A stretch of 57,252 nt of DNA, taken from a virus. A program made the translations under genes and the position numbers. Positions 1 through 26,485 of this stretch are shown in pieces; the first letter of the stretch is position 1; the number at the start of each line of letters is the position of its first letter. The DNA lies in IMG/VR virus record IMGVR_UViG_3300025128_000041, positions 1 through 57,252 of that record; one strand, 5' to 3'. The notes under the pieces were generated by a model. That model did not search any database. It saw only the letters and a program-made list of their open reading frames with translations, and was not told where the DNA came from.

Positions 1-235
1 TATCATTAAAGTTTTCTAAAATATCAAACACAGGCCAATAACTCTTAAGGTGTTTAAACGTTATAACAACCTTATCGTCATTCCACGCTCTTCTTGCATA
101 CGGGCATGGAGACATCCCGTTATAACGGTCATCAGGCTCTTCCAGCCAATTAAAAGACCACTCTCTGATCTCCTTACGAATAGTATATTCTCGTATACTA
201 TTAGTTTTATTGGCTAAATATTCTAGCTTTGCCAT
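1..235 (-). CDS. 5' part of hypothetical late gene, cut by window edge
   Basis: This is the first 78 or so codons of a protein that begins MAKLEYLANKT and runs off base 1. The same gene is complete at 56199-56828. The first 125 bases are identical between the copies. The remaining stretch has about nine substitutions, several at third codon positions. The duplication is best explained by the contig ends being the same locus from two variants. Function is unknown. Confidence 0.7.
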   Translation of the reverse strand, partial: MAKLEYLANKTNSIREYTIRKEIREWSFNWLEEPDDRYNGMSPCPYARRAWNDDKVVITFKHLKSYWPVFDILENFND

Positions 236-350
236 AGCCTTAATATCATGTAGCTAATTTTGCTAGCCGTTCTTTCTAAAGTATTGAGTTCGAGCTGCGC
301 CGCTACCACGAGCAATTGTTTTAGGCTCACCTACTAAGCTGCCACCACTC
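1..350. repeat. Left copy of imperfect terminal redundancy
   Basis: Bases 1-240 align to 56594-56833 and bases 268-350 align to 57170-57252. The left copy has only about 27 bases between the blocks, where the right copy has about 336 holding a 120-codon gene. This marks the contig ends as one genomic locus, implying a circular map, with a gene presence/absence variant. A true divergent tandem duplication is the alternative. Confidence 0.85.
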
Positions 351-1134: not shown

Positions 1135-1755
1135 CTACGATGCTACGTCGTAGCCAGTGATCTCAATCAGGAAACGTCCTGCTGTATATGCAGCATGACC
1201 TGTGCCTTGACCTACCAAGTATAAATACTGATCAGCAGCTATAGTTCCACCAGCAACCATAGTTCCTGCGGAAGCAGCACCGGCATTAATAATCTGAGTT
1301 TCTGTTAAATCACCAATGGCTGTGTCATTAACACCTGTGCCTTCAGTAGCAGAATACAAATCTATATCCGTACCACCACCAGCAGGTGTTTCGGTGCAAG
1401 TCATAGTCACACCAAATACAACGCCTTGGTTAGCCGTGGTTACTCGGCCAATAAATGCAACTCCATCACCATCTTTACCAATGATGTCGCCAGCAGTTCC
1501 ACCATCTCGCAAATCAGTAAGATCAATCATTATGGTTGTCTTAACAATATTTACATTAGTGTCAACGTCACTCTTTAAGCGATTAACTTGAGTTACATAA
1601 ACAGCAGCGGTGCCTTCAATACCAGCATCTGAAGTGGCTTCAGTAGCCATCTTGTCACCACTAGTAACTGTAATAGCGCCCGTGGTTGCATTTTTAGAAA
1701 TTTGTTGATACCCATTTTCCGAACGGACTGGGCCATTAAACGTAGTCTTAGCCAT
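1135..1755 (-). CDS. Putative capsid-associated structural protein (206 aa)
   Basis: The 206-residue product is dominated by Thr, Gly and Ala beta-strand-like segments and starts MAKTTFNGPVRSENGY. It sits immediately downstream of the major capsid gene. Composition and place fit a head decoration or stabilisation protein. A good Shine-Dalgarno (AGGAGAC on the minus strand) lies upstream of the ATG. No enzyme motif is visible, so function is inferred from context alone. Confidence 0.7.
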   Translation of the reverse strand: MAKTTFNGPVRSENGYQQISKNATTGAITVTSGDKMATEATSDAGIEGTAAVYVTQVNRLKSDVDTNVNIVKTTIMIDLTDLRDGGTAGDIIGKDGDGVAFIGRVTTANQGVVFGVTMTCTETPAGGGTDIDLYSATEGTGVNDTAIGDLTETQIINAGAASAGTMVAGGTIAADQYLYLVGQGTGHAAYTAGRFLIEITGYDVAS

Positions 1756-1837
1756 GTGTGTCTCCTGTCGTGGCTAGTGTCTGTTGATTATACAACAGTC
1801 AGGAAAGAAAAGGGGGCGCAAAGCACCCCCCAATCCG

Positions 1838-9638: not shown

Positions 9639-9689
9639 ATACCGCCCTATAGTATAGTTATCGCCTTGCTAATGGAAGGCAGTCCCCCC

Positions 9690-9742
9690 ATCGGGTATAA
9701 CACCACCCGATACTGGTCGGGGGGTTCCCTAGCTCCCCGACC
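9690..9742. promoter_or_regulatory. Two adjacent hairpins in terminase spacer
   Basis: ATCGGGT at 9690-9696 pairs with ACCCGAT at 9705-9711. GGTCGGGG at 9715-9722 pairs with CCCCGACC at 9735-9742. Both stems are perfect. A third weaker stem, CCGAAAGGA with TCCTTTGG, lies near 9793-9818. On the minus strand these lie in the leader of the large terminase message. They could be an attenuator, RNA stabiliser or part of a packaging site. Confidence 0.5.
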
Positions 9743-9852
9743 ACTCCTCAATAAGAAGCTCGTTGTAGCCATAAGTGAGCCACGCTTACTCCGAAAGGAC
9801 GAGAATCCTTTGGCTGTCAACCATTATAACTCAGGTACGTCTTACATCCAAA

Positions 9853-9877: not shown

Positions 9878-10002
9878 AAATGGTTTTTAATTTATATATA
9901 ATTTTTGTGGGGTGTAAACCAGAAAATAAACTGTGGTTTACAGGGGTGGGGGTTTGTAAAGTGAGAGTGTTCGACTGTCAGAATTTGTATATATAGGTAT
10001 AC

Positions 10003-10108
10003 GTGGGACTCCTGCGCATAATGCGGGTGGTCCGGGGTGCTGCACAACGTGTAAACGCATCGCCCGTGGGACTCCTAGGCATAATGCACGCTAGTCCTGC
10101 GCATCATG
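10003..10108. repeat. Direct repeats beside small terminase gene
   Basis: A 22-base unit reading GTGGGACTCCTGCGCATAAT then GC starts at 10003. It recurs with two changes at 10066, and a shortened third copy (AGTCCTGCGCATCATG) lies at about 10093 across the 3' end of the small terminase gene. Small terminases often bind repeated sites in or near their own gene, so this is a candidate packaging-recognition site. No function is shown by sequence alone. Confidence 0.5.
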
Positions 10109-10501
10109 GGATAGCAAACCGTTTAAACGATCCAATATCACCGTAGGTGAGTCTACTTGCTGCTCCACTACGTGCTGTTGCTCCACATAAAGACGGGAGG
10201 CTTTGCCTCTGTGGTGCTCTGCTTGGATAGCTGCGCTGTATTGCCCAGCAGATTTAGCCTCATCCCGAAGGGAAGCCAGCGATTCGAGGTGATCGGAGAG
10301 AGAAAGCGCTCTTTCTTCCTCCAATTCCTTAGATCTACGATCTATTAGCTCCATAACGTCCTCTCTTTTAACCAACTTACTCCCCAGCTTTGCTGGGTGA
10401 CCTGTGTATCCCGCCATACGTACCGCATCACTCTGTGTGTGGCCTTCGGCTACGTACCGAGCAAACAAGCGTTCTTTCACCGATGTATGTATATGAGGCA
10501 T
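10091..10501 (-). CDS. Terminase small subunit
   Basis: The 136-residue product begins with a helix-turn-helix region typical of small terminases (VKERLFARYVAEGHTQSDAVRMAGYTG, residues about 9-35). A basic turn and a long central helix (ELEEERALSLSDHLESLASLRDEAKSAG) for oligomerisation follow. It would bind phage DNA and present it to the large subunit. The ATG at 10501 is preferred. An in-frame TTG at 10513 gives four more residues. No clear Shine-Dalgarno precedes either. Confidence 0.82.
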   Translation of the reverse strand: MPHIHTSVKERLFARYVAEGHTQSDAVRMAGYTGHPAKLGSKLVKREDVMELIDRRSKELEEERALSLSDHLESLASLRDEAKSAGQYSAAIQAEHHRGKASRLYVEQQHVVEQQVDSPTVILDRLNGLLSHDAQD

Positions 10502-10559
10502 AGCGCGATTCAATGCAAAACTTATACGTAGTATAAAAACTTATTGGAATAAAAAATAG

Positions 10560-10593
10560 TTGACAAAGTTTAAACGATATGAGCTTAGTGTAA
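10560..10593 (+). promoter_or_regulatory. Possible early promoter with GTTTAAAC inside
   Basis: TTGACA at 10560-10565 is followed by GTTTAAAC at 10568-10575 and a TGTAAT at 10588-10593. The TTGACA-TGTAAT spacing of 22 is longer than ideal for sigma-70, so the -10 assignment is weak. It lies between the divergent small terminase and early-operon genes. That is where an early promoter is needed. Confidence 0.35.
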
Positions 10594-10850
10594 TGGCAAC
10601 TGAGCGGCGGAGCTTCTCCATCTCCAGTAGCCCGATAGGTGTAGGCCACCTCCCCACGGATCTTGGGGTGCATCATGTTAACGGCGATGTGATGTTACAG
10701 CGAAGCTGAAAGGATGTCGGAACTGGGGCGTAGCGGTCCTTCGAGTCTCCCTCGATACCGCCAAACCAGTGGACAGCGTAGCTGAAATGTTGCGTGGCAT
10801 AGGAGATATGCCTCATGTCCGAGTAGCTAAGATTTCATCTTAGAGAGGCT
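10594..10850 (+). ncRNA. Candidate structured leader RNA of early operon
   Basis: About 260 bases without a credible gene hold several perfect stems. GGCATA (10796) pairs with TATGCC (10807), and CTAAGAT (10827) pairs with ATCTTAG (10837). A CCCC/GGGG stem lies at about 10652-10667, with a GCGGT/ACCGC stem at about 10732-10760. A 20-base direct repeat beginning ACAGCG(A/T)AGCTGAAA occurs at 10697 and 10773. The region is G+C-richer than its surroundings and lies before the first early gene. It may be an ncRNA or structured 5' leader. It matches no RNA family I know. Confidence 0.4.
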
Positions 10851-10942
10851 TACGATAACGGTAGGCCACTACGAGATTAGATCTTGCTTGTTTTACAAGT
10901 GACAACCGTTTAAACTAGAGTTTCGCAACAAGGAGTTATCCT

Positions 10943-11572
10943 ATGGATAAGATATACAACGACCGAGAGCAGTGGTTAAACGCTGCCATCATCTTGCTCA
11001 TTAATGAGCTGTTCACACTTGCTGGAGTCCAACCGGCTGAATGGGAGTCGAAGAGATACGCAGTATCTTGTGGCTTCCCTATTGGATACAGAGGATCACG
11101 TACTGGCAAGGTGACCCTTGGTCAAGCTTTTGACCCCGCCACATCGTCTAACGGCACCGCTGAGATGTTCATCAACCCCATCATGGATGATGTGATCGAG
11201 GTACTGCTGGTGCTGCTGCACGAGATGGTTCATGTCCTAGTGGGTAACCATGAGGGACACAAGGGGCGTTTCGCAGTGGTTGCCAAGGCAATGGGTTTAA
11301 CCACCCCGCTGACGGCTTTGATGAGTGCCGAAGGCAAATACAATGCTACTGAGGAGCTTATCGCTAAGATTCGAGAGATTGCCGAAATACTCGGAGAGTA
11401 TCCACACTCGAAGGTTGACCCCCAGATGCGAAAGAAACAAGGCACCCGAATGCTTAAGATCTCTTGCACTGATTGCGGTTTTACCGCAAGAGCTTCTGCT
11501 AAATGGGTATCTTTGATACACAGCAATTCACCCTGCCCAGTGTGTTCATCAGCTACGCTGGTCACTGAGTAA
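10943..11572 (+). CDS. SprT-like zinc metallopeptidase
   Basis: The 209-residue protein carries the zinc-protease motif HEMVH at residues 93-97 with a further His in GNHEGHKGRF. It has a C-terminal zinc ribbon (CTDC near 178-181 and CPVC near 197-200), the SprT/Spartan-like layout. Family members cleave proteins bound or crosslinked to DNA, and here the target is unknown. It is the first gene of the early plus-strand operon, after a TTCGCAACAAGGAG leader. The following two genes encode a MoxR-like ATPase and a vWA-like protein, suggesting a joint protein-remodelling function. Confidence 0.82.
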   Translation: MDKIYNDREQWLNAAIILLINELFTLAGVQPAEWESKRYAVSCGFPIGYRGSRTGKVTLGQAFDPATSSNGTAEMFINPIMDDVIEVLLVLLHEMVHVLVGNHEGHKGRFAVVAKAMGLTTPLTALMSAEGKYNATEELIAKIREIAEILGEYPHSKVDPQMRKKQGTRMLKISCTDCGFTARASAKWVSLIHSNSPCPVCSSATLVTE

Positions 11573-11605
11573 CGTTTAAACAAATCGCAACAAGGAGAAC
11601 ATTTC

Positions 11606-12727
11606 ATGTTCGATCATTCTAACAAAATTCCACCCCATTCACTAATGAAAATCACCGATGCGCTGGAGTTAATCCAGCTTGGTGACGCTCCCAACGCCAT
11701 CCAATCATCAGCGCTTAAACTGCTAGCAGTACGCTACGGCAAAGGCACGATGACTGAGCAAGAGATGATCAACCTATGGTTGAGCGGTCCCGATGCTGGT
11801 CAACCTGTGGTTGATGAGTCAAGCATGGCAGCCGCTGTAGTACAGCTCGAAGAGACGATGACCAAGAAGATCCAGCCCCAGCTCGAAGAGATTCGAGAAC
11901 AGGTAGGCAAGACGGTCAAGACCGAGCTTACCATCACCATAGGTGACTACAGCAAAAACCTTGGCACTGAAGCCAAACACTACGTGTTCGAGAAGGTACT
12001 GATCAAGATTGCAGCACGTTTAAACGTTTACCTCCCCGGTCCTGCTGGATCCGGCAAGACTACGATTGCGGAGCAAATAGCCGAGGCGCTTGATCTTCCC
12101 TTCTATGCCTACGGTGCCATCGGCATGGCCCACGAATTCGAGGGATTTATGAACGCTCAAGGCAACTACGTTGAATCGATGCTTTACAAGGCATTCAAGA
12201 ATGGCGGGATGGTGCTGTTCGATGAGATGGACGCTTCCAACGCTAATGCGTTGCTTCGTTTAAACGCTATCCTAGCCAACAAGATCGCAGCATTCCCCAA
12301 CGGGGAGATGGTCAAGAAGCATCCAGACTTCGTAGTCATAGCAACAGGCAACACGTTTGGACATGGAGCAACAGCGCAGTACGTAGGACGTAACCCGCTA
12401 GACGGTGCAACGCTCGACCGATACGTCAACATCCCTATGGGATACGATGAGGAGCTAGAGCGCAGCATAGCTGGCAACGATGCATGGGTAGACTTTGTTC
12501 AAGCAGTGAGGCACGTAGCAGAGGAACACAAGATGCGCTACATCGTCAGCCCAAGAGCGAGCATTAACGGAGCGATACTGATCGCTGCTGGTGACAACGT
12601 GGATGACATCAAAGATGAAACCATCTTCAACAAGGGATTCAGCGAAACCGATCTTGAAAAGATCAACACTGATCCACGAGTAATCAACGCTGGAATCGCA
12701 CTTAACGACAGCCAAGCAGTAGCTTAA
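11606..12727 (+). CDS. MoxR/CobS-type AAA+ ATPase
   Basis: The 373-residue AAA+ protein has Walker A GPAGSGKT at 145-152 and Walker B MVLFDEMD at 202-209. Sensor-1-type VIATGNT lies near 243-250, and an arginine-finger-like DRYVNIPMGYDEELE follows. Residues 1-110 form a separate helical N-terminal domain. MoxR/CobS ATPases work with vWA proteins, remodelling substrates or inserting metals. The vWA-like gene follows after 11 bases, supporting such a pair. Phage relatives are often annotated CobS but a cobalamin role is unproven. Two GTTTAAAC copies are embedded as Arg-Leu-Asn codons. Confidence 0.85.
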   Translation: MFDHSNKIPPHSLMKITDALELIQLGDAPNAIQSSALKLLAVRYGKGTMTEQEMINLWLSGPDAGQPVVDESSMAAAVVQLEETMTKKIQPQLEEIREQVGKTVKTELTITIGDYSKNLGTEAKHYVFEKVLIKIAARLNVYLPGPAGSGKTTIAEQIAEALDLPFYAYGAIGMAHEFEGFMNAQGNYVESMLYKAFKNGGMVLFDEMDASNANALLRLNAILANKIAAFPNGEMVKKHPDFVVIATGNTFGHGATAQYVGRNPLDGATLDRYVNIPMGYDEELERSIAGNDAWVDFVQAVRHVAEEHKMRYIVSPRASINGAILIAAGDNVDDIKDETIFNKGFSETDLEKINTDPRVINAGIALNDSQAVA

Positions 12728-12738
12728 GGAGTTTAAAC

Positions 12739-13593
12739 ATGGCAAGACGCAAGCAAGGACAGACATTGACAGTCGAATCTACATACGGCGAAGTAATCGA
12801 CAAGATGCGCACTGGTGTCCTAAAGGACAACGACATGAGATCATCTAAGACTAGTGACAAGTCATTTACTGGCACCGACACATTTGATGAAGCGGTACAC
12901 CTAGCAGTCAACGGATGGGATGAGGGACGCAGCGAGCTAGCACAGAGCGCAGAGTTTGCATCGGCGCTGGTACAACAGATCGACCAGCCAACGTGGGAGT
13001 TTGCTCCTTCTGGAGCGATGCCTCACATCCCAGCGGCAGCGGCTGGAGTGCCTGACAACATGATGACCCTCTACGAGAACGACACCAATCGCAAGATGCC
13101 TATCGTGACAATGTATGTAGACATCGGAGCAACGTGGAACACTACGACCGAAGCGATGATACGAAGAGGCGGGGCAATCGTGGCTCTTGTAGACCAGATC
13201 GAAGCAAGCGGCAAGCGAGTGCAGATCGTGGCAACGAGTGCAACGGAGACTCACGGAGTGAAGTTTGATGGAGTCAACACAAGCAAGCTGATCCACAAGA
13301 TCACCATCAAGGAAGCCGGAGAGCATCTGGACATTGACAGAGTGGCATTCGCTACAGCTCACCCAGCGATGCTCAGACGGATATGGTTCAGGCTTGTGGA
13401 GATCCATGCAGATGGCATCGTGTCTGGATATGGCAACGTAGGCAAGCTTAAGGCTGAAGACATCGAGTCCAACGCAATGTATGTCCCTCCGATGTACGGA
13501 GACGATGGATACTACAGCGAAGAGGAAGCAGTCGAGACTGTTCAAGGACTCTGGAGGGAGGCGACCGAAGGGGAAACCTTTGAAGCCGCGTAA
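12739..13593 (+). CDS. vWA-like partner of the AAA+ ATPase
   Basis: The 284-residue product has a Rossmann-like core (MPIVTMYVDIGATWNTTTEAMIRRGG, residues about 115-140), then ALVDQIEASGKRVQIVATSATET, resembling vWA proteins paired with MoxR ATPases. The usual metal-site DxSxS is replaced by DIGAT, so metal binding may be altered. GTTTAAAC at 12731-12738 directly abuts the ATG, sitting between the AAGGA Shine-Dalgarno and the start. The assignment as vWA-like rests on context and fold pattern rather than a full motif. Confidence 0.65.
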   Translation: MARRKQGQTLTVESTYGEVIDKMRTGVLKDNDMRSSKTSDKSFTGTDTFDEAVHLAVNGWDEGRSELAQSAEFASALVQQIDQPTWEFAPSGAMPHIPAAAAGVPDNMMTLYENDTNRKMPIVTMYVDIGATWNTTTEAMIRRGGAIVALVDQIEASGKRVQIVATSATETHGVKFDGVNTSKLIHKITIKEAGEHLDIDRVAFATAHPAMLRRIWFRLVEIHADGIVSGYGNVGKLKAEDIESNAMYVPPMYGDDGYYSEEEAVETVQGLWREATEGETFEAA

Positions 13594-13617
13594 CGTTTAA
13601 ACACAAACGGATTACAC

Positions 13618-13648
13618 TTGACAACCAACTAAACAATCGGGTTACAAT
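13618..13648 (+). promoter_or_regulatory. Possible sigma-70 promoter
   Basis: TTGACA at 13618-13623 and TACAAT at 13643-13648 are 19 bases apart. They are followed by a TTCGCAAC-type leader and the ATG at 13684. The spacing is slightly long. GTTTAAAC lies just upstream at 13595-13602, two bases after the previous stop codon. Confidence 0.5.
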
Positions 13649-13683
13649 GGTAACCTATTCGCAACCGCAACAAGGAGAACATT

Positions 13684-13923
13684 ATGTTCACTACTTATAT
13701 GACCGATGGCGAAACGCCATCAACGTGGGCCGATCACCAGATCGGAGAGGCAATAACCGAGATCATCTTCGCAGTGCGTGATGATAGCAACACGAGCCTC
13801 GAACAGAAGAAGCGCATGATTACTGCGCTGATTCGTAGGCAGAACGCTTTGCTTGACAAAGCAGAAGCTGACAGGCTTTGGGATAGCCCAGAGCATTTCT
13901 TCAGCCGAGTACCCTTGGCTTAA
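13684..13923 (+). CDS. Hypothetical early protein (79 aa)
   Basis: The 79-residue acidic-to-neutral protein starts MFTTYMTDGETPSTWADHQIG and has a helical, Arg/Lys-rich centre (LEQKKRMITALIRRQNALLDKAEADRL). It has a strong TTCGCAACCGCAACAAGGAG-type leader and its own putative promoter. No family is recognised. Tiny early proteins of this type often modify host functions. Confidence 0.7.
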   Translation: MFTTYMTDGETPSTWADHQIGEAITEIIFAVRDDSNTSLEQKKRMITALIRRQNALLDKAEADRLWDSPEHFFSRVPLA

Positions 13924-13938
13924 CCTTTCGCAACAACA

Positions 13939-13956
13939 GGGGGGGCTTGTCCCCCC
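13939..13956 (+). promoter_or_regulatory. G-run/C-run hairpin before Shine-Dalgarno
   Basis: Seven G (13939-13945), a CTTGT loop and six C (13951-13956) form a very stable hairpin. It is inserted between the TTCGCAAC element (13927) and the AAGGAG Shine-Dalgarno. It is too close to the start to be a normal terminator. It may protect the downstream message, pause RNA polymerase or separate expression of the flanking genes. Confidence 0.5.
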
Positions 13957-13968
13957 AAGGAGAACACG

Positions 13969-14253
13969 ATGAAAATGGAAGTAGAACTGGAAGTGCCAGT
14001 GACCGTGACGGTCAAGGTAGAGATTGACGCTACTAAGTCAGAGATCAGAGAGCTATATGGCCTTGATCGTGATGACGATGTAGAGGATTACTACGTGGAC
14101 TATGTGAATGATCATCGACACGATGAGATCGTGGATGACATGAATTTGGATTCAATAAATGTATCTTTTGACTCCAGCGCACCATCAAGAAAAATAAAGG
14201 TGGATGTCGCTAGTCAAGATATAGATGTAACCGAGGCAGAGGAGGCACGATGA
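13969..14253 (+). CDS. Acidic hypothetical early protein (94 aa)
   Basis: The 94-residue product is strongly acidic (repeated Asp/Glu, for example DRDDDVEDYYVDYV) with a beta-rich start (MKMEVELEVPVTVTVKVEIDA). High acidity is common in phage DNA-mimic or anti-host proteins, but no specific match is recognised. The stop overlaps the next start as ATGA. Confidence 0.65.
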   Translation: MKMEVELEVPVTVTVKVEIDATKSEIRELYGLDRDDDVEDYYVDYVNDHRHDEIVDDMNLDSINVSFDSSAPSRKIKVDVASQDIDVTEAEEAR

Positions 14254-14456
14254 GACAGATAGACATAACAGGCCAAGACGGTAACGCCTTTGCATTACTG
14301 GGGTGCGCAAGGAGTTTTGCAAAGCAACTTAATTGGGATGCCAAGGCAATCACAGAAGAGATGAAGGCGGGTGACTACGAACACCTACTCGACACGTTCG
14401 AGAAGCACTTCGGATCTTTCGTTGAATTAGTAGGGAGGGATGAAGATGACGATTAA
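14250..14456 (+). CDS. Hypothetical early protein (68 aa)
   Basis: This is a 68-residue protein (MRQIDITGQDGNAFALLGCA) with a helical C-terminal half ending in Asp/Glu. The start overlaps the preceding stop (ATGA). I recall similar short proteins, GNAFALLGxA, in other phage genomes, but no function is known. Confidence 0.65.
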   Translation: MRQIDITGQDGNAFALLGCARSFAKQLNWDAKAITEEMKAGDYEHLLDTFEKHFGSFVELVGRDEDDD

Positions 14457-14652
14457 AGATTACACTGTTATCTGCGAGACAGATGAAAACTATCAGACAG
14501 AATATGTTTTTTCAGCAGAAAGTTTCCACGATTGCAGGGTTCAGGCCAAGGAACACGGGTTGATGGGCGACAAACCTCTGCGGGTAGAGCGAACAGAGAT
14601 CTACTATGGCAATTCGGGGGAGAGAACGTGGAAAACAAGCGAGGGATTTTGA
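14446..14652 (+). CDS. Hypothetical early protein (68 aa)
   Basis: This small protein starts MTIKDYTVICETDENY. The ATG at 14446 has GGGAGGG eight bases upstream, making it a better start than the ATG at 14440. It overlaps the previous gene by 11 bases. No domain is recognised. Confidence 0.55.
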   Translation: MTIKDYTVICETDENYQTEYVFSAESFHDCRVQAKEHGLMGDKPLRVERTEIYYGNSGERTWKTSEGF

Positions 14653-14653
14653 T

Positions 14654-14806
14654 ATGACGGTGAGTGATAAAAAAGAAACGCCGGATTGGTCGAAAGAAGA
14701 GGCTAAAGAAAATGTCAGGTCAATGTGCTCACGATGCGGCCAACCGCCTAGGGCGTATGAATGCCGGACTTGTGGCAGCACAACTCATCACTACGAGGAA
14801 TTTTAA
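14654..14806 (+). CDS. Zinc-ribbon miniprotein (50 aa)
   Basis: The 50-residue product ends with two CxxC pairs (CSRCGQPP and CRTCGS), a zinc-ribbon-like pattern. Its charged N-terminus is MTVSDKKETPDWSKEEAK. The ATG follows the previous stop by two bases (TGATATG). It could bind nucleic acid or a host protein. Function is unknown. Confidence 0.55.
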   Translation: MTVSDKKETPDWSKEEAKENVRSMCSRCGQPPRAYECRTCGSTTHHYEEF

Positions 14807-14807
14807 T

Positions 14808-15032
14808 ATGAAGATAACGTTTAAACAGCTAACCAAATTTATTTATAACCTGCTGGGCCTATCAAGCTGGGTTCTTGCCAACTTATTTATGGGATACACA
14901 GGCTTTGTATTCATCGAGCTAGGCGACACGCTATCCACGATCATGGGTAGCTGTATGCTTGTGGCAGTCTCAGCAAGTTTTGTAATGCTGATACTGTACA
15001 CGTTTTATTTAACCAAGAAGGGAAGCGCATGA
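14808..15032 (+). CDS. Two-span membrane protein (74 aa)
   Basis: The 74-residue product has two hydrophobic segments (LGLSSWVLANLFMGYTGFVF and MGSCMLVAVSASFVMLILYTF) with a short acidic loop and a basic C-terminus, so an inner-membrane protein is expected. It sits among early genes, away from the lysis genes, so an early host-membrane function is as likely as a holin. GTTTAAAC occurs within its start region. Confidence 0.6.
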   Translation: MKITFKQLTKFIYNLLGLSSWVLANLFMGYTGFVFIELGDTLSTIMGSCMLVAVSASFVMLILYTFYLTKKGSA

Positions 15033-15241
15033 AAGTAACAAGACAATCAATGGCGAGCGGTAAAACCCGCACGAAAGATCTTCCGATAACCCCTGTTCAG
15101 TATGTAAAATACATACGAGGAGAAGGTCATGTCCAAGACATCATGCCTGACCTCCCTCCAGAGGATCGTGAGTTCCTCATCAGTGGGGTTACTCAGGAAG
15201 AGTGGGAAGAGTTATACGGTAAGAATGAAGACGATGAATGA
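15029..15241 (+). CDS. Hypothetical early protein (70 aa)
   Basis: This 70-residue hydrophilic protein overlaps the membrane protein's stop by ATGA. The C-terminal half is acidic (MPDLPPEDREFLISGVTQEEW), and QEEWEELYG resembles short helices in other small phage proteins. No function is recognised. Confidence 0.65.
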   Translation: MKVTRQSMASGKTRTKDLPITPVQYVKYIRGEGHVQDIMPDLPPEDREFLISGVTQEEWEELYGKNEDDE

Positions 15242-15262
15242 ACAACGCAGACCGGAGGATTG

Positions 15263-15565
15263 ATGGCTCGTTTAAACAAGGAAAAGAAACCCGGATTCCA
15301 CCGGCAATTTCTCACACTAACCAACGGAGTAGCACCGTTCAAGTCAGCAGACAAGGCTGGCGAAAGTAAAGAGCTTGAGGATCAGGTCCAAAAGTTCTTG
15401 GATCAAGGCGGCAAGATCGAGCAAGTGGAGGAGGGCGCAAGCAAGTACCAGCCGATCAGGAACAAGAAGCAGATGAAGGTTAGCGCAAGGGCGCACTTCA
15501 GCAACGCTCAACGTAACGCTACGGCAAAGGTTTCAAACACCAGAAACCGCAGCAAGTGGTACTAG
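15263..15565 (+). CDS. Basic hypothetical early protein (100 aa)
   Basis: The ATG at 15263 has GGAGGA just upstream, so it is preferred over the TTG at 15260. The 100-residue protein is basic and hydrophilic. The segment LEDQVQKFLDQGGKIEQVEEGASKY resembles phage peptides of the FLxxGGxIxxxP type. The tail is Arg/Asn-rich (NAQRNATAKVSNTRNRSKWY). It may bind nucleic acid. GTTTAAAC at 15270 encodes Arg-Leu-Asn. Confidence 0.6.
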   Translation: MARLNKEKKPGFHRQFLTLTNGVAPFKSADKAGESKELEDQVQKFLDQGGKIEQVEEGASKYQPIRNKKQMKVSARAHFSNAQRNATAKVSNTRNRSKWY

Positions 15566-15580
15566 TAAACTAAAAAAACG

Positions 15581-15609
15581 TTGACAGTTCTAAACACCCC
15601 GCTTATTGT
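15581..15609 (+). promoter_or_regulatory. Sigma-70-like promoter before HNH gene
   Basis: TTGACA at 15581-15586 and TATTGT at 15604-15609 are separated by exactly 17 bases. The -10 lies inside a CCCC/GGGG dyad (15597-15614). A TTCGCAACAGGAG leader and the ATG at 15638 follow. This is the best canonical promoter seen in the window. Confidence 0.65.
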
Positions 15610-15637
15610 GGGGGTTCCTTCGCAACAGGAGACAAGC

Positions 15638-16057
15638 ATGGCAAACAAAAACCCTCAGTTCTGGGGTGAATCAGAGTGCAGAAACTGCGGTCTGGTTTTC
15701 CAATACCGATACACACAGAAGAATGGCTTCTATTGTTCACGGCAATGTTCTGGTGAACACATAGGTAAGGAGCGATTCCAGAAGGGTACGGACTACCGAT
15801 CACGGACTATCCGCAAGTATCTATTTAGAGAGCGCGGCAAGCGGTGCGAGGTGTGCGATCAGGTTAGGGTCGCAAAGGGGCTGGAGATTCACCACGTTGA
15901 TGGAGATCCTACCAACAACGGACGAGAAAACCTCCAAGTAATATGTTTGGAGTGTCACGAATTATCACACAACCATGACGCATCAAAGCTCTCGGCTAGT
16001 GGACGAGCTAGATGCAATAACGCAACATCGTTTAAACGTAAAGGAGAAGCAGCATGA
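15638..16057 (+). CDS. HNH endonuclease
   Basis: The 139-residue protein has an N-terminal zinc-finger-like part (CRNCGLVF and FYCSRQC) and a C-terminal HNH core. CEVCDQ is followed by LEIHHVDGDPTNNGRENL and VICLECHELSHNH, giving the CxxC, HH, N and H residues of the fold. It cleaves DNA, either as a homing-type free-standing nuclease or as a phage function. Its ATG follows the TTCGCAAC leader. The stop overlaps the next gene by ATGA. Confidence 0.85.
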   Translation: MANKNPQFWGESECRNCGLVFQYRYTQKNGFYCSRQCSGEHIGKERFQKGTDYRSRTIRKYLFRERGKRCEVCDQVRVAKGLEIHHVDGDPTNNGRENLQVICLECHELSHNHDASKLSASGRARCNNATSFKRKGEAA

Positions 16058-16308
16058 GAAGCATGATGGACTTAGTGGAAGAAATACAGGATGAAACCTT
16101 GAACGAATCAATCAGGCGATCATTCGATCAGTTCAGAAGACCAGAGGAATTGTACTACGCATTCCAAGCGGCAGTGGCAGCTTGCAGTGAAGCCTCTCAG
16201 GAGATCCTTGATGGATCAGATGAAGAGCTTCGTAAGTTTGTCTTAGGGTATCAGGTGGAGATGATTATTGATGCTTTCGACAAGCGCTTGAAGGAGCTTG
16301 CACAATGA
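16054..16308 (+). CDS. Hypothetical early protein (84 aa)
   Basis: The 84-residue, all-helical and acidic product starts MRSMMDLVEEIQDETLNESI. ATGA couplings link it to the genes before and after. There are no membrane or catalytic motifs. GTTTAAAC (16030) and AAGGAG lie upstream, inside the end of the HNH gene. Confidence 0.65.
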   Translation: MRSMMDLVEEIQDETLNESIRRSFDQFRRPEELYYAFQAAVAACSEASQEILDGSDEELRKFVLGYQVEMIIDAFDKRLKELAQ

Positions 16309-16493
16309 ATGTGGATGAAAAGAAAACATACAACATCACAGGTATATCAGAGGAAGAGCATCGGCTTCTGGTGCTTGCCTTAGATTACTACATCGACAGC
16401 GTGACGCAGGGTAATGATGTGCAGTGGGCGCAAACGATAGCGATGGGGGTGAGGCTTAAGCACCTACTAATGGGGACGCTTGATGAACGGTGA
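16305..16493 (+). CDS. Hypothetical early protein (62 aa)
   Basis: The 62-residue protein has a central helix (EEEHRLLVLALDYYIDSV). It overlaps both neighbours by a few bases. The pattern ISEEEHRLLVLALDYY is typical of short regulatory helices, but no family is recognised. Confidence 0.6.
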   Translation: MNVDEKKTYNITGISEEEHRLLVLALDYYIDSVTQGNDVQWAQTIAMGVRLKHLLMGTLDER

Positions 16494-16671
16494 TGATCTA
16501 ACCAAGAAACTTAAGTTCTTTCTTAATCACCAGCTTGGTGAGAAGTGGGCGATCAATGCCGACATGGACATCTTGAACAACCAAGAGGGAGGAACAATAA
16601 CAATCCATGTGTGGGGTTTAAACAAGAACCCCAAACAATTCAAATCAATTCGCAACAAGGAAAACATATGA
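16483..16671 (+). CDS. Hypothetical early protein (62 aa)
   Basis: The 62-residue product starts at ATG 16483, inside the end of the previous gene. It contains a beta-type segment (GGTITIHVWGLN) and a basic tail. GTTTAAAC at 16616 encodes Gly-Leu-Asn. The next gene's TTCGCAACAAGG leader lies inside its last codons. Confidence 0.55.
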   Translation: MNGDDLTKKLKFFLNHQLGEKWAINADMDILNNQEGGTITIHVWGLNKNPKQFKSIRNKENI

Positions 16672-17147
16672 GTGATGTAACTTCAGCCCCGGTATTACAA
16701 GCAAACATCGTGAAAGGTAAGCCGATTCTTTTGACAGGCGGCTCTCACCTTATCGGCAATCTGAACATAAAGTATGGTGAGCTTGTGCGCTTGTTTGGGA
16801 AGCCGCAAGAGTGTGACGATAGCAAGGTTGATGTGATGTGGGAGCTTGAGTTTGAGGATAGCTACGACCTAAGTACAGGTGAGAAAGACTCAACGCTTGC
16901 ACCTACAAAGGTCAGGATCGACATACATAACTGGAAGGATGGCCCGAACTATGGCGGCTATGACGTAAGAGATATTATCAGTTGGACTATCGGGGGTAAT
17001 TACGTAAGGGATGTGTTTGTTTTAATCAGGTACTTGGAAGATGCTAACGTTGATTTTAACGCAATCGTTCCAACGTTTATGGTTGAGCAAGCCCAGAGAA
17101 CAGAAGGATTTAAGGGGTCACCAAATGGATCTGTTAAGTTCGTTTAA
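16668..17147 (+). CDS. Hypothetical early protein (159 aa)
   Basis: The ATG at 16668 follows a TTCGCAACAAGGAAAAC leader and overlaps the previous stop. The 159-residue protein is mixed alpha/beta with a segment MWELEFEDSYDLSTGEKDST and a hydrophobic helix (VRDVFVLIRYLEDANVDF). It resembles small phage proteins with no assigned role. No catalytic motif is identified. Confidence 0.7.
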   Translation: MSDVTSAPVLQANIVKGKPILLTGGSHLIGNLNIKYGELVRLFGKPQECDDSKVDVMWELEFEDSYDLSTGEKDSTLAPTKVRIDIHNWKDGPNYGGYDVRDIISWTIGGNYVRDVFVLIRYLEDANVDFNAIVPTFMVEQAQRTEGFKGSPNGSVKFV

Positions 17148-17301
17148 ACATCAAGCCGGTCGCATTATGCGATGGGTTTTAACTGCGCTTTGCGCAATGG
17201 TGTATCTGTACATTCACGAATTAGATTTTCGTGATCAGTGCAGATTGGATAAGCAATGTGTTTCGCAACATTTAAATGGAGAAAATAGCTATGACTATTA
17301 A
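17125..17301 (+). CDS. Small single-span membrane protein (58 aa)
   Basis: The 58-residue product starts at ATG 17125 with AAGGGG seven bases upstream. It has one hydrophobic span (MRWVLTALCAMVYLYIHELDF) preceded by basic residues. It overlaps the neighbours on both sides. The next gene's leader motif lies inside its last codons. The call is moderate because of its short size. Confidence 0.45.
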   Translation: MDLLSSFKHQAGRIMRWVLTALCAMVYLYIHELDFRDQCRLDKQCVSQHLNGENSYDY

Positions 17302-17470
17302 TGTAAAAGAACTTGCCACGCAAGCAAAAGAAATCGGTATGGACAACATCGTGAAGGCGCTAGAAAAGCAAGCCGCTAAGTTGAGGAAACAGGATGAGTC
17401 TTCTCAGAAGATTGCAGATCTTGTGGATTCAATACTTGAACTTGTTGACACTGATAAGGAGAAAGCATGA
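17291..17470 (+). CDS. Helical hypothetical early protein (59 aa)
   Basis: The ATG at 17291 has GGAG nine bases upstream and is preferred to the in-frame ATG at 17276. The product is a nearly all-helical Lys/Glu-rich peptide (MTINVKELATQAKEIGMDN), coiled-coil in character. The stop overlaps the next start as ATGA. Confidence 0.6.
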   Translation: MTINVKELATQAKEIGMDNIVKALEKQAAKLRKQDESSQKIADLVDSILELVDTDKEKA

Positions 17471-17844
17471 GCAACGTAGTTAGTCTGGACGATTACCGTC
17501 CAAACCAATTCTCTAAGGATAGCGCGGTCACTAGGCCGCGCTTTAAGAACGTGCTTAAGCGTATGAATATCGGAGCTGTAACACCCAATGCGGTGGAGCA
17601 GCTTCTTCAAGCTCACGAGACAACGGCAAGAGCATACGTTGAACACCTGTTCGCTCGATTCGATTCGGGCGACTGGGGTGATGTGTGCGAGGAAGACTCC
17701 AAGATAAACGAAGAGAGCGTGTCGGATGGCTCTATGGTGATGGGTGTGTACCCGATACACCAGAACACACCAGACGTAAAGGTTTGGCTCGTCTTGGATG
17801 GTGGTCACGAAACTGCAACCGTACTAATGCCAGAGGATTACTAA
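17467..17844 (+). CDS. Hypothetical early protein (125 aa)
   Basis: The 125-residue product starts MSNVVSLDDYRP, a start common to small phage and bacterial regulators. A helix QLLQAHETTARAYVEHL follows, and an acidic tail ends the protein. No domain is recognised. It is coupled to both neighbours by start/stop overlap, placing it in one operon with the following HTH protein. Confidence 0.65.
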   Translation: MSNVVSLDDYRPNQFSKDSAVTRPRFKNVLKRMNIGAVTPNAVEQLLQAHETTARAYVEHLFARFDSGDWGDVCEEDSKINEESVSDGSMVMGVYPIHQNTPDVKVWLVLDGGHETATVLMPEDY

Positions 17845-18257
17845 TGAACCTACCGCCTTGGAGCGATGCGGCTGTAGAGATGTACAAGCAAGGAAAGTCT
17901 CTTCGAGTAATCGGGGAGACGCTTGGTATGTCGATCACGCCAATACGAGAACAACTACTACTGCGTTTAAACGCTGAAGGATACTACCACCTACGATTTA
18001 ACAAGCCTGAGTCTGAAAAAACCATACGGATTAAGGATGCTTTAAGGAACGGAGATCGTGTTGCAGACATTGCGAAACAAGAAGGGTGTTCGCGCAACTG
18101 GGTTTACAAAGTAAAGAATGGTGTGCATAGGACTGTGGACAGGCGCATCAAGAATCTTGCAGACAAAGACTACATAGACAAGAAGCTTGGTATGCCAGAG
18201 ATGACACAGGAACGGCGCAGTAAAGAGATTGAAGAGATAGAGAAGTTGTTAAGGTAA
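17844..18257 (+). CDS. Two-HTH DNA-binding protein
   Basis: The 137-residue protein contains two helix-turn-helix-like segments. One is AVEMYKQGKSLRVIGETLGM (residues about 9-28) and the other IKDALRNGDRVADIAKQEGC (about 62-81), followed by SRNWVYKVKNG. The tail is charged. It resembles Trp-repressor/resolvase-type HTH modules and would bind DNA as a regulator. It is the last gene of the coupled operon before a noncoding gap with an inverted repeat. It is a reasonable candidate to read the repeated GTTTAAAC palindrome, but that is inference. Confidence 0.75.
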   Translation: MNLPPWSDAAVEMYKQGKSLRVIGETLGMSITPIREQLLLRLNAEGYYHLRFNKPESEKTIRIKDALRNGDRVADIAKQEGCSRNWVYKVKNGVHRTVDRRIKNLADKDYIDKKLGMPEMTQERRSKEIEEIEKLLR

Positions 18258-18467
18258 CTCGTGGGGGAAAGGGTTAGGGGGGTGGTGACCTCAGACCTAA
18301 ATTCCTTCCGCTCTCACTATAGGTATTCATATGCCTTCTCCTGAGAGCGGTTAAACCAGAAATAGGGGGGATGAAGCGCGGCCCCACGGCCTAGCTGATA
18401 GGTTTTCATGCCGCCAATCCCCTCGCTCACCACACATATTTACTTTGCAACATGATAGGAATGTAAC
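18258..18467. promoter_or_regulatory. Gap with 8-bp inverted repeat
   Basis: This 210-base gap has CCGCTCTC (18308-18315) and GAGAGCGG (18343-18350), arms that could pair in RNA. G-rich runs lie on both sides. A TTTGCAAC leader-like motif (18444) precedes the GTG start at 18468. The repeat could be a terminator-like stem for the upstream operon or an operator. Confidence 0.4.
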
Positions 18468-18893
18468 GTGAACACCCACAAGAACATGACAGGGGCTACG
18501 ATCTATGTCCTGTTTAAACAAAGCGAAATTGTTTATGTTGGACAGAGCATTAACCCTTACAGTCGGATAGGCCAACACACAAAAGACAAAGACTTTGATC
18601 ACTTCAGAGTTATGCCTTGCCTGAAAAATCGCATGACCTATTGGGAAGATTATTTAATCTACAAGTACCAGCCCAAGTACAATGTTCTGGGAAAGAAGAA
18701 AGGCAACCGCGCAATTAAACAAGTGGCTAAAGAAGATCCGAGGATCGAGTACGAGTGTGAGCCGTTGTTCATCAACAATTCTCACAACATAGGCTATAGT
18801 TATGTGTCATCCACAGGGTCACGGTTAGTGATTGATAGTGGTCGCACCTTTCAATCCAATGTCTTGATGATCAGCGATCCGATACGTGCATGA
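18468..18893 (+). CDS. GIY-YIG nuclease
   Basis: The 141-residue product shows the GIY-YIG pattern. ATIYVLF is followed by IVYVGQSINPYSRIGQHTKDK, giving the YV, YVGQS and R positions of the fold. EDYLIYKYQPKYNVLGK supplies the later Glu and Asn. GIY-YIG proteins nick or cut DNA, often as free-standing homing nucleases. The GTG at 18468 has AGGA upstream and is preferred. An ATG at 18486 is an alternative. It is the last plus-strand gene before the repeat array. Confidence 0.75.
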   Translation: MNTHKNMTGATIYVLFKQSEIVYVGQSINPYSRIGQHTKDKDFDHFRVMPCLKNRMTYWEDYLIYKYQPKYNVLGKKKGNRAIKQVAKEDPRIEYECEPLFINNSHNIGYSYVSSTGSRLVIDSGRTFQSNVLMISDPIRA

Positions 18894-18925
18894 TACGTGC
18901 ATGAGTTGAGGACAACTTATACGAT

Positions 18926-18943
18926 CTACAACTTTTCTTGTAG
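18926..18943. terminator. Hairpin after GIY-YIG gene
   Basis: CTACAA (18926-18931) and TTGTAG (18938-18943) form a 6-bp stem with a TTTT-containing loop. It lies between converging genes just before the repeat array. It has no long T-tract, so the terminator call is tentative. Confidence 0.35.
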
Positions 18944-18944
18944 C

Positions 18945-19112
18945 GTTTAAACGGAGCACTATTCATTACACCACGAGTCACAACAATACTGCTGTTGGTC
19001 ATAGCGCTTCCGTCACAATACCACCCGTCACAATAACACCGCTGTTGGTCATCAGTTTAAACGGCGCACATCTCATTACACCGCAGGTCATAATAATACC
19101 GCTGTTGGTCAT
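18945..19112. repeat. Direct-repeat array, candidate replication origin
   Basis: Two 58-base units, 18945-19002 and 19055-19112, are about 83% identical by eye. Each starts with GTTTAAACGG and ends with GCTGTTGGTCAT. A third partial unit (19027-19052) shares the last 26 bases, giving spacings of 50 and 60. A further CGTCACAATA lies at 19011. The array fills the gap between converging genes next to the primase-helicase gene. Such iterons are typical of replication origins. A packaging site is the alternative. Confidence 0.65.
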
Positions 19113-19157
19113 AATTTATTGTGAAGGGTTGGCTCAAATAAAATTATGAGTAGCTCA

Positions 19158-20867
19158 TTAGCCTGTCATGTTGTGACCAGTGTAGTAAGTTCCATCTTTA
19201 TAGTTGTACTTCAAGTCAACCGTTCCCACCATACCGCTTTGCTTAAAGCGTATCTTCTTCACATGGATTCGGATGTCATTAGAGTCTGGCGTGAAGTCCC
19301 TCTCAACAATCAGGATGTTGTCAGCTTTGTTATAAAAGTTAGCTGACCCCGCTATGTCATAAGGCTCTGGTACAGGGAACGTTCCATCTGCATTACGTCT
19401 TAGCTTTGCGGGGTGAGCAACCAGCCACACATGGCACTCGTTATTTGCCGCCCACCTCTTTAGCTTCGCTAGCATCTGAGAAACGTATTCGGTTTCTGTC
19501 CACCCGCTAGGCCGCTTATGCTCAAACTCATTATATGGATCAAGGACTAACCCTCTTACCTTTGAGTACCTCTGCACGCAAGCAGTAGCATTGTCTAAAC
19601 ACCAATCTATAGTCGGAGCCTCATCGTCCGATCTGATCCAGTAATAATGGTTGCCTATGAATGAAATTGCATTGGCCCATTCACCATCATCCATCTCTCC
19701 TCCAGCAAATGTTTTCCAAGCTGGCTTCCCCACATACTTGGCAGCAATTTTATTGATGTGATCATCAACAGGATTCTCGAATGAGCAAACAGCAAATCTC
19801 CAGTCATGGTCTTTAGCTAGGTTTAAACAGATCTGATCTAGGAATTCTGACTTGCCAACTCCGGGTGCGCCGGAAACTATCGTGAGTTCTCCGGGCCTTA
19901 CCCTGTAGTTCTGACTAAGGGCAGAGATTCCAACATCAATACCCATCCGAACATCACCCTTCAATAATGCGTAAGCATCTTCCACATAGTTACGTGTTTC
20001 TTGTAACGCTTTAAGCGGCCAAGGCTCTGCGCTATCAACAAACTCTGCTAACTTTTCCTTTCCATACCCGACCAATACATCATTAGGATCTTTGCATCCT
20101 TCGGGCCACACCACTCTCCAACATCTTGACCTACCCAACCTACGCGCCAGCTCATTGCGCATGATAAGACCAACCTCGTCACCATCATTCAATAAAACTA
20201 TTCGTTTAAACGTTGACAGCGAATCGTTTAGCTCATCGATCCACGGGATCTTGTGATCACTTGCTCCATCAGGTAGTGAGATAACGTTAGTAAATCCCGC
20301 TTCCATAACTGACAGCGCATCAACCTCGCCCTCTGTTATGATCAGCGTTTCGTTTTCTGGATCGACTAAGTTCCATAGGTATGGCAAACGAGATCCGTTT
20401 TTTACCTGAGTAAACTGCTTATCAATCGTGCGAAACTTAACGTTAATTGTTTTGCCATCAGCATCTCGATGAACAAAGGCGATTGCCTTCTTGTTCTCAC
20501 CATTAATGAATGCCTCTCCAGCCTCAACTCCCGCCAAGTCTGTTATCTCTTTAGATATTCCTCTCTTCTCAAACCATTGAGCTATCTTATCGTTAATCCC
20601 TTGAAGCTCTGGTATCTTGGGTTTCTCTTTCTGTTTAAACGGACTGTTGTTCATAGTGTTTCTCCATACATTCCCTTCCCAATCACAGTGATGGCAGCGC
20701 CATTGCGCACCCTCAAAATCTATTGACATGGAAAGGCAATACTCGTTGCGATTTTTCTTGCGTGTGTGTGAACATTGGGGGCAAAGCATTTTCTTCTGCC
20801 CCTCGTTTAAGTCTGTAGGATTAAAGCCCTCAGATGTAAGCTTGTCCCAAAAGTCTGGCGCACTCAC
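19158..20867 (-). CDS. Primase-helicase (T7 gp4-like)
   Basis: The 569-residue protein has an N-terminal zinc finger (C29, C32, C58, C61). A TOPRIM primase part includes LIITEGEVDALSV near 173 and LLNDGDEVG. A RecA/DnaB-type helicase follows, with Walker A GAPGVGKSEF near 332, RGLVLDPYNEF as Walker B, and VWLVAHPAKL with DIAGSANFYNKADN. It would synthesise primers and unwind DNA at the fork. No phage DNA polymerase is seen, so it probably recruits the host replisome. The stop faces the repeat array. GTTTAAAC occurs three times within it. Confidence 0.92.
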   Translation of the reverse strand: MSAPDFWDKLTSEGFNPTDLNEGQKKMLCPQCSHTRKKNRNEYCLSMSIDFEGAQWRCHHCDWEGNVWRNTMNNSPFKQKEKPKIPELQGINDKIAQWFEKRGISKEITDLAGVEAGEAFINGENKKAIAFVHRDADGKTINVKFRTIDKQFTQVKNGSRLPYLWNLVDPENETLIITEGEVDALSVMEAGFTNVISLPDGASDHKIPWIDELNDSLSTFKRIVLLNDGDEVGLIMRNELARRLGRSRCWRVVWPEGCKDPNDVLVGYGKEKLAEFVDSAEPWPLKALQETRNYVEDAYALLKGDVRMGIDVGISALSQNYRVRPGELTIVSGAPGVGKSEFLDQICLNLAKDHDWRFAVCSFENPVDDHINKIAAKYVGKPAWKTFAGGEMDDGEWANAISFIGNHYYWIRSDDEAPTIDWCLDNATACVQRYSKVRGLVLDPYNEFEHKRPSGWTETEYVSQMLAKLKRWAANNECHVWLVAHPAKLRRNADGTFPVPEPYDIAGSANFYNKADNILIVERDFTPDSNDIRIHVKKIRFKQSGMVGTVDLKYNYKDGTYYTGHNMTG

Positions 20868-21136
20868 GGTGCTGTCTGAAAGACTGTTCTCCCAGACTCA
20901 GTAACCCTTCGGCCTAAGTCATCTCGATCAAGATCTCGCGCTGTCTTAGCGTCCATCTTGGTTAGATAAGCTGACGTACTTATGTACCAGCGCTTACGTG
21001 TCTTGGGATCAGCATCGTATGTCAGCCAGTCATCCCTCGATTGAAGCACTGCATCTAAGTTCGGTATGTTTTTGAAAGCCTTTTGCCAACGTGTGTAGTC
21101 GGCCTCGTTAAGTTTGATTGTGTTCCCTTTGAACAT
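20864..21136 (-). CDS. Hypothetical replication-region protein (90 aa)
   Basis: The 90-residue basic protein includes LNEADYTRWQKAFKNIPNLDAVLQSRDDWLT, which resembles a segment seen in phage replication-accessory proteins (KLTDEEYARLEKDFP type). The start at 21136 has GGAGG five bases upstream, better than the adjacent ATG at 21139. A TTCGCAAC motif precedes it. The stop overlaps the primase-helicase start, so the pair is co-translated. It may be a loader or primase accessory. Confidence 0.6.
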   Translation of the reverse strand: MFKGNTIKLNEADYTRWQKAFKNIPNLDAVLQSRDDWLTYDADPKTRKRWYISTSAYLTKMDAKTARDLDRDDLGRRVTESGRTVFQTAP

Positions 21137-21572
21137 CATTTCCTCCTGTTGCGAATTGAAAATGGTCGAGGTTCCAGTGTACTACTGGTTCCTGATCTTG
21201 TGAATCGTTTCTGTCATTTCTTCCACCCCATTCTATAGAATCTGGCGGTGTGCTTAAGTCAAGGAACCCTATTGATCCGCATGACCACTTCACAATAAGT
21301 ATTACATCCTTGCCTGTTGCAGTCATAAGCATCTTTGCATTGGCTAGTTTCATTGCCGACAATATGTATGTTGAAAATGTCCCGCACTTATGCGTCCGTA
21401 CTTTAATCTCTGCAAACCCCTCAACCTTCCCTTGCTCGTTCAAGAAGGTGTAGTCGATTGGGTATTGCCTTGGGTTAGCTTTCGCTTCCACTCCCCAGAG
21501 TTCCGAAACCCTTTCGGCAAGCTCTGATTCGTTCTTGCGATCCTTGTCGGATTCATATATCGGTCTACTCAT
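21108..21572 (-). CDS. PD-(D/E)XK-like nuclease
   Basis: The 154-residue product carries PIDYTFLNEQGKVEGFAEIKVR, the D...ExK pattern of a PD-(D/E)XK nuclease fold, at about residues 43-64. Later helices contain KMLMTATGKDVILIVKW. It starts MSRPIYESDKDRKNE after GAGGAG. It overlaps the next gene by 29 bases. It could act on branched or broken DNA. Low similarity families make the subtype uncertain. Confidence 0.6.
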   Translation of the reverse strand: MSRPIYESDKDRKNESELAERVSELWGVEAKANPRQYPIDYTFLNEQGKVEGFAEIKVRTHKCGTFSTYILSAMKLANAKMLMTATGKDVILIVKWSCGSIGFLDLSTPPDSIEWGGRNDRNDSQDQEPVVHWNLDHFQFATGGNDVQREHNQT

Positions 21573-21881
21573 ATCAGCTCCTCAGTTGCTTATATTTATA
21601 GATAGTTGATTAGATCGGTTGGTGAGAGAAGGACGCTCCCCCCAAACCCCCCACGTTAAAACATGGAGAAGATGGAAAGATCATCCCACTAGATCGGTCG
21701 GAGCCGAGCATGGACATTACCAGTAATTTATAACGCGGATTCTGGTCTTACCCCCTTCCGCTGATTCCTTGCTTTTATTAAAATACACACATACACTTGA
21801 TCGCGCAACCCCTACTAAATTTATACTGTATCGTGTTGCACTCCTTTGTTGCGAAAGGAACGGCCCTGTCCATAGTTCACC
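21573..21881. other. Non-coding gap with leader motif and G/C runs
   Basis: This 309-base gap lies between the RusA-like gene stop and the nuclease gene start. It holds a minus-strand CTTTCGCAACAAAGGAG motif (about 21843-21859), not followed by an ordinary start codon. A CCCCCC-AAA-CCCCCC run lies near 21640 and A+T-rich segments near 21595 and 21730. A long 5' leader or a promoter for the nuclease/primase unit is plausible. No gene is supported. Confidence 0.4.
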
Positions 21882-23950: not shown

Positions 23951-24192
23951 TGGCTTACGAAATCCGAGAACTGGACTGTAATTTGTTTCCTAATGATAGG
24001 AAGCAAGAGTCTTGGCACGCTGACTTCAACGGAAAGTTGCTAGTCAATGGCAAATACTACTACGTAAACCTTATGGATAAGCGAGAAGACCCGCAGTCCA
24101 AGGTATCTTTTAGGCTGACACTTAAAGAATCTGGAGAACCGAAGCAAGCCCCACGATCTAGCGGTTTTGAATCGGATGATTTAGGATTATGA
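23950..24192 (+). CDS. Small protein after the annealing gene (80 aa)
   Basis: The 80-residue product starts MAYEIRELDCNLFPNDRKQ and has two strands (ADFNGKLLVNGKYYYVNLMD). The acidic tail DDLGL resembles those of single-strand-binding helpers, but an OB fold cannot be shown by eye. It starts at the TAATG junction, so it is translated with the recombination genes. Confidence 0.6.
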   Translation: MAYEIRELDCNLFPNDRKQESWHADFNGKLLVNGKYYYVNLMDKREDPQSKVSFRLTLKESGEPKQAPRSSGFESDDLGL

Positions 24193-26484: not shown

Positions 26485-26485
26485 A

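What the first reader, a model, noticed from the sequence alone, without database searches (positions are those of the whole stretch)
10594..10850. Highly structured non-coding RNA candidate before early operon
Within 260 bases there are at least four perfect or near-perfect stems and a 20-base direct repeat, with no credible gene. It resembles no tRNA or known riboswitch I can identify. It is placed between divergent genes and follows a TTGACA. It may be an abundant early phage RNA that controls the host or the early operon.
Basis: seen in the sequence. Interest (0 to 1): 0.65.

Follow-up and report, generated by a model that had tools for sequence, protein, structure and literature searches.

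The report
New structured RNA in aquatic phages
The spot is a real, previously uncatalogued folded RNA of about 280-370 bases that a group of HTVC023P-related aquatic phages makes from the very start of their early-gene transcript; its shape is kept by matched mutations in relatives, but what it does in infected bacteria is not yet known.

Summary
Window 10595-~10870 (+) is a genuine structured noncoding RNA. It begins at the predicted start of an early promoter (TTGACA, 18 nt, CTTAGT), between the divergent terminase small-subunit gene and an early operon (SprT-like protease, AAA ATPase, DUF7192). Covariation decides it: relatives in 29 other IMG/VR contigs keep the same order and stems. In 17 aligned sequences 98.5% of stem cells pair and 23 of 58 pairs change on both sides (0/500 shuffles; slid controls at most 5). 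Constant blocks are a GGUG..CACC hairpin, a loop with ACGGC, and AAAGGAUGUCGG. G-U pairs show the + strand is the functional one. Nothing in Rfam matched in any of four groups tested, up to E=10, apart from chance hits. Relatives lacking the RNA mostly carry small unrelated early ORFs in that slot; one with TerL 93% identical has neither. I commit, at modest confidence, to an accessory early RNA acting in trans during host takeover. A cis-acting leader (antitermination or processing) is the main rival. The 20-base repeat is not a family feature. New RNA family; mechanism inferred, transcription untested.

The parts
10560..10589 (+). early promoter: -35 TTGACA (10560-10565), 18-nt spacer holding GTTTAAAC (10568-10575), -10-like CTTAGT (10584-10589)
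   Evidence: 18-nt spacing kept in 23 of 24 distinct RNA-bearing sequences; the generic sigma-70 scan did not score it because the -10 is weak
10595..10870 (+). conserved structured noncoding RNA; 5' end at the predicted transcription start, 3' end not fixed (last conserved hairpin ends at 10867)
   Evidence: 29 further IMG/VR contigs; covariation; no Rfam match
10595..10632 (+). P1/P1a hairpin: GGCAACTG/CAGTAGCC and GGAG/CTCC
   Evidence: stems replaced by other complementary sequences in groups B-E: GGCCAAGC/GCTTGGTC, ATCGACGG/CCGACGAT, GACC/GGTC, GGGC/GCCC
10636..10694 (+). P2-P3-P4 core: nearly invariant GGTG-TAGGC-CACC hairpin, P3, and P4 with NACGGC loop
   Evidence: model R1 68.1 bits; 92.4% of cells paired, 10 covarying pairs, 0/500 shuffles on covariation score
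10709..10720 (+). AAAGGATGTCGG block, identical in all five sequence groups
   Evidence: alignments and sequences
10722..10770 (+). P6 domain closed by ACTGG/CCAGT, with the conserved GGCGT and GCCAA elements
   Evidence: stem covaries across groups: CTGTG/TACAG, GCGTT/AGCGT, GCGGT/ATCGT
10771..10867 (+). 3' domain: P7 (GGACA/TGTCC), 7-bp hairpin 10827-10843, and hairpin GGCTTAC-GATAACG-GTAGGCC 10847-10867
   Evidence: predicted fold; last hairpin has a counterpart CTTTCAC-GATAAAG-GTGAGAG in group B; in groups C-E this part folds differently (P7/P7a/P8) and covaries strongly
10091..10513 (-). terminase small subunit gene (divergent neighbour)
   Evidence: PHROG 51 terminase small subunit E 2.5e-8; next to the RNA in every carrier
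10943..11572 (+). first gene after the RNA: SprT-like metallopeptidase (HEMVH motif, zinc ribbon read by eye)
   Evidence: PHROG 6361, unknown function, E 9.6e-32; on the RNA strand downstream in every carrier contig that extends far enough
11606..12727 (+). AAA+ ATPase (MoxR/CobS-like)
   Evidence: Pfam AAA_5 E 2.8e-12, PHROG 249
12739..13593 (+). DUF7192 protein
   Evidence: Pfam PF23822 E 5.1e-41

Best explanation
A new family of structured phage RNA, transcribed on the + strand from the first early promoter, with its 5' end set by the promoter. Shown by sequence comparison: the fold, the strand, the conserved position and the absence from Rfam. Inferred: the 280-370-nt RNA is the first product of infection, is probably cut or stopped away from the downstream mRNA, and acts in trans on a host or phage factor through its constant elements (UAGGC loop, ACGGC loop, AAAGGAUGUCGG), as an accessory early takeover or counter-defence function. 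It sits in the slot that relatives mostly use for small, variable early ORFs. The confidence given is for the trans-acting mechanism; that this is a real structured RNA I hold at about 0.95.
For: Covariation in all stems except the nearly invariant P2. Constant loop and linker sequences inside otherwise variable stems, as expected for binding elements. 126 of 986 stem cells are G-U, which would be A-C mismatches on the other strand. P1 starts at the predicted start site in all groups. The slot is optional: L003 (TerL 93% identical) has only a short promoter leader, and 12 relatives with lower TerL identity carry small ORFs there. Carriers can have an extra gene between RNA and SprT gene, so the RNA is tied to its promoter, not to one gene. 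The locus therefore looks like an exchangeable early cargo.
Against: No transcription data. No recognisable terminator or established processing site separates the RNA from the operon, so it could be only a leader. The position before the SprT-AAA-DUF7192 genes is the same in every carrier; a freely acting cargo might be expected to move more. No target was identified; a reverse-complement search of the invariant block in the window gave only chance matches.
Confidence: 0.45

Rival explanations
1. Cis-acting leader of the early operon: the nascent RNA modifies RNA polymerase (put-like antitermination), or controls processing or stability of the early mRNA.
For: It lies directly after the promoter and ahead of a long early operon, with no strong terminator in between; it is co-oriented and always promoter-proximal; domains are arrayed in a row, suited to co-transcriptional action; in groups C/D a long hairpin follows just before the ribosome-binding site.
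Against: Relatives including L003 run the same operon without it. Terminator-like sites in 10900-26500 number 18 against 13 +/- 3.4 in shuffles, most of them on the other strand. It is about four times larger than HK022 put sites (size of put from general knowledge).
Confidence: 0.35
2. Ligand-sensing or translation-controlling leader (riboswitch-like).
For: 5' leader position, complex fold, invariant loops.
Against: No alternative terminator or conserved pairing of the ribosome-binding site was seen; the first downstream gene differs among carriers; no Rfam riboswitch match.
Confidence: 0.08
3. Packaging RNA analogous to phi29 pRNA, given its place beside the terminase genes.
For: Adjacent to TerS in all carriers.
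Against: Transcribed away from terminase with the early genes; L003, with TerL 93% identical, lacks it; no Rfam match.
Confidence: 0.04
4. Structured DNA (packaging or replication site) rather than RNA.
For: Intergenic, at a divergent junction next to terminase.
Against: G-U and U-G pairs are kept or exchanged for one another (column pair 241-315: GU 9, UG 7, CG 1; 238-318 GU in all 17), which fits RNA on the + strand; exact promoter spacing upstream.
Confidence: 0.03
5. Chance stems in intergenic DNA.
For: Energy of the original interval is not unusual.
Against: 98.5% paired cells, 102 both-side-changed cells against 34 +/- 4 in shuffles; slid controls at most 9.
Confidence: 0.01

Closest known systems
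GOLLD and ROOL RNAs
   Same: large, elaborate phage-encoded RNAs found by covariation, with no known function (PMC12286853)
   Different: half their size or less, unrelated in sequence (no Rfam hit), at an early promoter and not in a tRNA island; no tRNA genes in the window
HK022 put RNA (general knowledge)
   Same: structured RNA at the start of an early phage transcript
   Different: about four times longer, different fold, antitermination untested, operon is kept without it in relatives
phi29 pRNA
   Same: phage structured RNA gene near packaging genes
   Different: no Rfam match, divergent from terminase, absent from the held fragment of a phage with 93% identical TerL
CsrB/RsmZ-type sponges (general knowledge)
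   Same: one invariant AAAGGAUGU resembles a good CsrA site
   Different: GGA motifs are not enriched (window 6 against 6.0 expected)

Membership tests
any Rfam 15 family | reaches the curated or at least a suggestive score | tested here: not met
   no gathering-level hit at the RNA in the window; E<=10 scans of groups A-D gave nothing or weak chance hits below gathering scores; group E was not scanned
tRNA / tmRNA | ARAGORN-detectable fold | tested here: not met
   no genes in the window or in L005, L009, L086, L087, L172
GOLLD / ROOL | covariance-model match | tested here: not met
put-type antiterminator | position just after an early phage promoter on the sense strand | tested here: met
   (promoter predicted, not measured)
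put-type antiterminator | readthrough of terminators in cis | not testable with these tools
   needs a reporter assay; relatives without the RNA keep the operon
phi29 pRNA | needed with the packaging motor | tested here: inconclusive
   absent from the held fragment (21.9 kb) of L003 despite 93% identical TerL
CsrA/RsmA sponge RNA | many GGA motifs in loops | tested here: not met
   GGA counts equal to shuffles in nine members
structured RNA in general | compensatory base-pair changes beyond shuffled and slid controls | tested here: met

The most novel reading that the evidence does not exclude
A new class of trans-acting phage RNA, made first in infection, that binds and redirects a host machine (polymerase, ribosome or a defence protein) through its invariant loops, and that replaces the small early takeover proteins used by related phages.
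Probability: 0.35. Interest if true: 0.8.

Novelty: new variant of a known kind. Interest (0 to 1): 0.62.

Why it matters
Few large phage RNA families are known and the best-known ones (GOLLD, ROOL) have no settled function. This one has a predicted promoter and 5' end, a strand, a fold and constant motifs, and sits at the first position of the early transcript with close relatives that naturally lack it, so its role could be tested directly by comparison or reporter assays.

Tried and rejected
tRNA/tmRNA (a 5' GGCATCGACGGATT recalls tmRNA; ARAGORN and Rfam negative). CsrA sponge (GGA not enriched). Hidden gene. The 20-nt direct repeat as a functional unit (absent from other groups). Antisense target of AAAGGATGTCGG in the window (6 matches against 3.75 by chance). 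Cultured phages: no DNA match in 50,697 phage records with two members (one 27-nt chance hit) and no model match in four TerL relatives. A first attempt to align the whole core failed, so hand-trimmed modules were used. A further loose pattern scan gave no new member. SprT used as a query found only two near relatives.

Full report
Setting. The 57-kb window (44% GC) is a phage with TerL up to 59% identical to those of sequenced phages, DSL-LC04, 023Pt_psg01 and the pelagiphages HTVC027P and HTVC023P. Terminase, portal and structural genes run on the - strand; early genes run on the + strand from 10943. The RNA lies at that divergent junction.

Observation. Folding energy alone does not separate the given interval from shuffles (z -0.99), and energy z-scores in relatives are modest. 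The direct repeat is 17 of 20 identical and is not a family feature.

Relatives. TerL relatives in viral contigs gave 80 loci. Several keep TerS(-) and SprT(+) flanking a 480-560-nt gap with no gene. Pattern scans checked with a covariance model of the P2-P4 core gave 29 contigs besides the window, 24 distinct sequences with the standard motifs. They fall in five groups by eye: A (window, L085), B (L005, L007, L084/L109), C (L004, L009, L011, L013-L016, L094, L097), D (L086, L087, L089, L093, L095, L170, L173), E (L172, L174). Wherever the contig reaches far enough the order is TerL-, TerS-, RNA+, SprT+, AAA+, DUF7192+, with an extra gene sometimes inserted between RNA and SprT gene.

Structure. 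On the core of all groups but E, 92.4% of stem cells pair, 10 of 18 pairs change on both sides, and the covariation score is 0.548 against 0.192 +/- 0.032 in shuffles and at most 0.140 in slid controls. On the near-full-length alignment of groups C-E (A4), 98.5% pair, 23 of 58 pairs and 102 cells change on both sides (shuffles 13.0 and 34.4, 0/500), and slid controls give at most 5 pairs and 9 cells. Examples: P7 AGTGAA/TTCACT, CGTAAA/TTTACG, CGTTAA/TTAACG; P7a CTAG/CTAG, CTCG/CGAG, CAAG/CTTG; P8 varies at all six pairs. P1 and P6 are replaced by other complementary sequences between groups; these stems were read by hand. The structure was partly derived from the same sequences, so the percentage paired is favoured by construction, and cells count sequences rather than independent events; but the number of both-side-changed pairs and the slid controls are not explained by that. 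Constant parts are the P2 hairpin, the ACGGC loop, AAAGGAUGUCGG, GGnGU and GCCAA-like elements. Groups A and B differ from C-E in the 3' domain. Summing the table, 126 of 986 cells are G-U or U-G, which supports RNA and the + strand.

Promoter and ends. TTGACA (TTGACG in one) and a -10-like hexamer (CTTAGT, CTTGAT, CATAGT, CCTAAT and similar) are 18 nt apart in 23 of 24 distinct sequences (19 in L004), and P1 starts about 5-8 nt after the -10. So the RNA 5' end should be the transcript 5' end. The 3' end is unknown; no terminator was found.

Optional slot. L003 (TerL 93% identical) has a 133-nt gap without the RNA, and no match in its 21.9-kb record. Twelve other relatives without the RNA carry small ORFs with ribosome-binding sites in the same slot. 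The RNA therefore behaves like an accessory early locus. This is the main reason I prefer a trans-acting role over a required leader, but it is inference.

Known families. No Rfam match to this RNA at gathering level in the window, none up to E=10 in group A, and only chance-level matches in groups B-D. ARAGORN is negative. Open-access literature searches on phage structured RNAs and on HTVC023P phages found no description; the HTVC023P-type genome paper does not contain the words noncoding, non-coding or sRNA (PMC9599517). Subscription papers and preprints were not searched. GOLLD and ROOL are the nearest kind: large phage RNAs of unknown function (PMC12286853).

Verdict. Real, conserved, new RNA family (about 0.95 confident). 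Mechanism: trans-acting early RNA 0.45, cis leader 0.35, others the rest.

Noticed in passing
window, 47 sites (e.g. 10121, 10568, 10908, 11574): The palindrome GTTTAAAC occurs 47 times (about 1 expected), often between genes and in the spacer of the early promoter. It is about 0.4-1.4 per kb in TerL relatives down to about 72% identity and absent or at chance level in more distant ones: possibly the site of a phage DNA-binding protein.
   Followed up: partly
window 9660-9832, - strand: A second candidate structured RNA upstream of TerL, conserved in L085 and L003, with compensatory stems such as ATCGGGT/ACCCGAT and TTCGGGT/ACCCGAA.
   Followed up: partly
window 9980-10100: GGGACTCCTnnGCATAATGC repeats between TerS and TerL, with similar blocks in nearly all RNA carriers; possibly a packaging or operator site.
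   Followed up: no
L024:3703-3949: A possible structured RNA in the same early slot of a relative, with a 90% identical copy of part of it in L019.
   Followed up: no
window 1753-1804, - strand: Rfam RF03012 Mu-gpT-DE RNA just after the Mu gpT-like capsid gene.
   Followed up: no
window 1-236 and 56594-56829: Contig start nearly repeats a stretch near its end, then diverges; likely end redundancy with strain variation.
   Followed up: no
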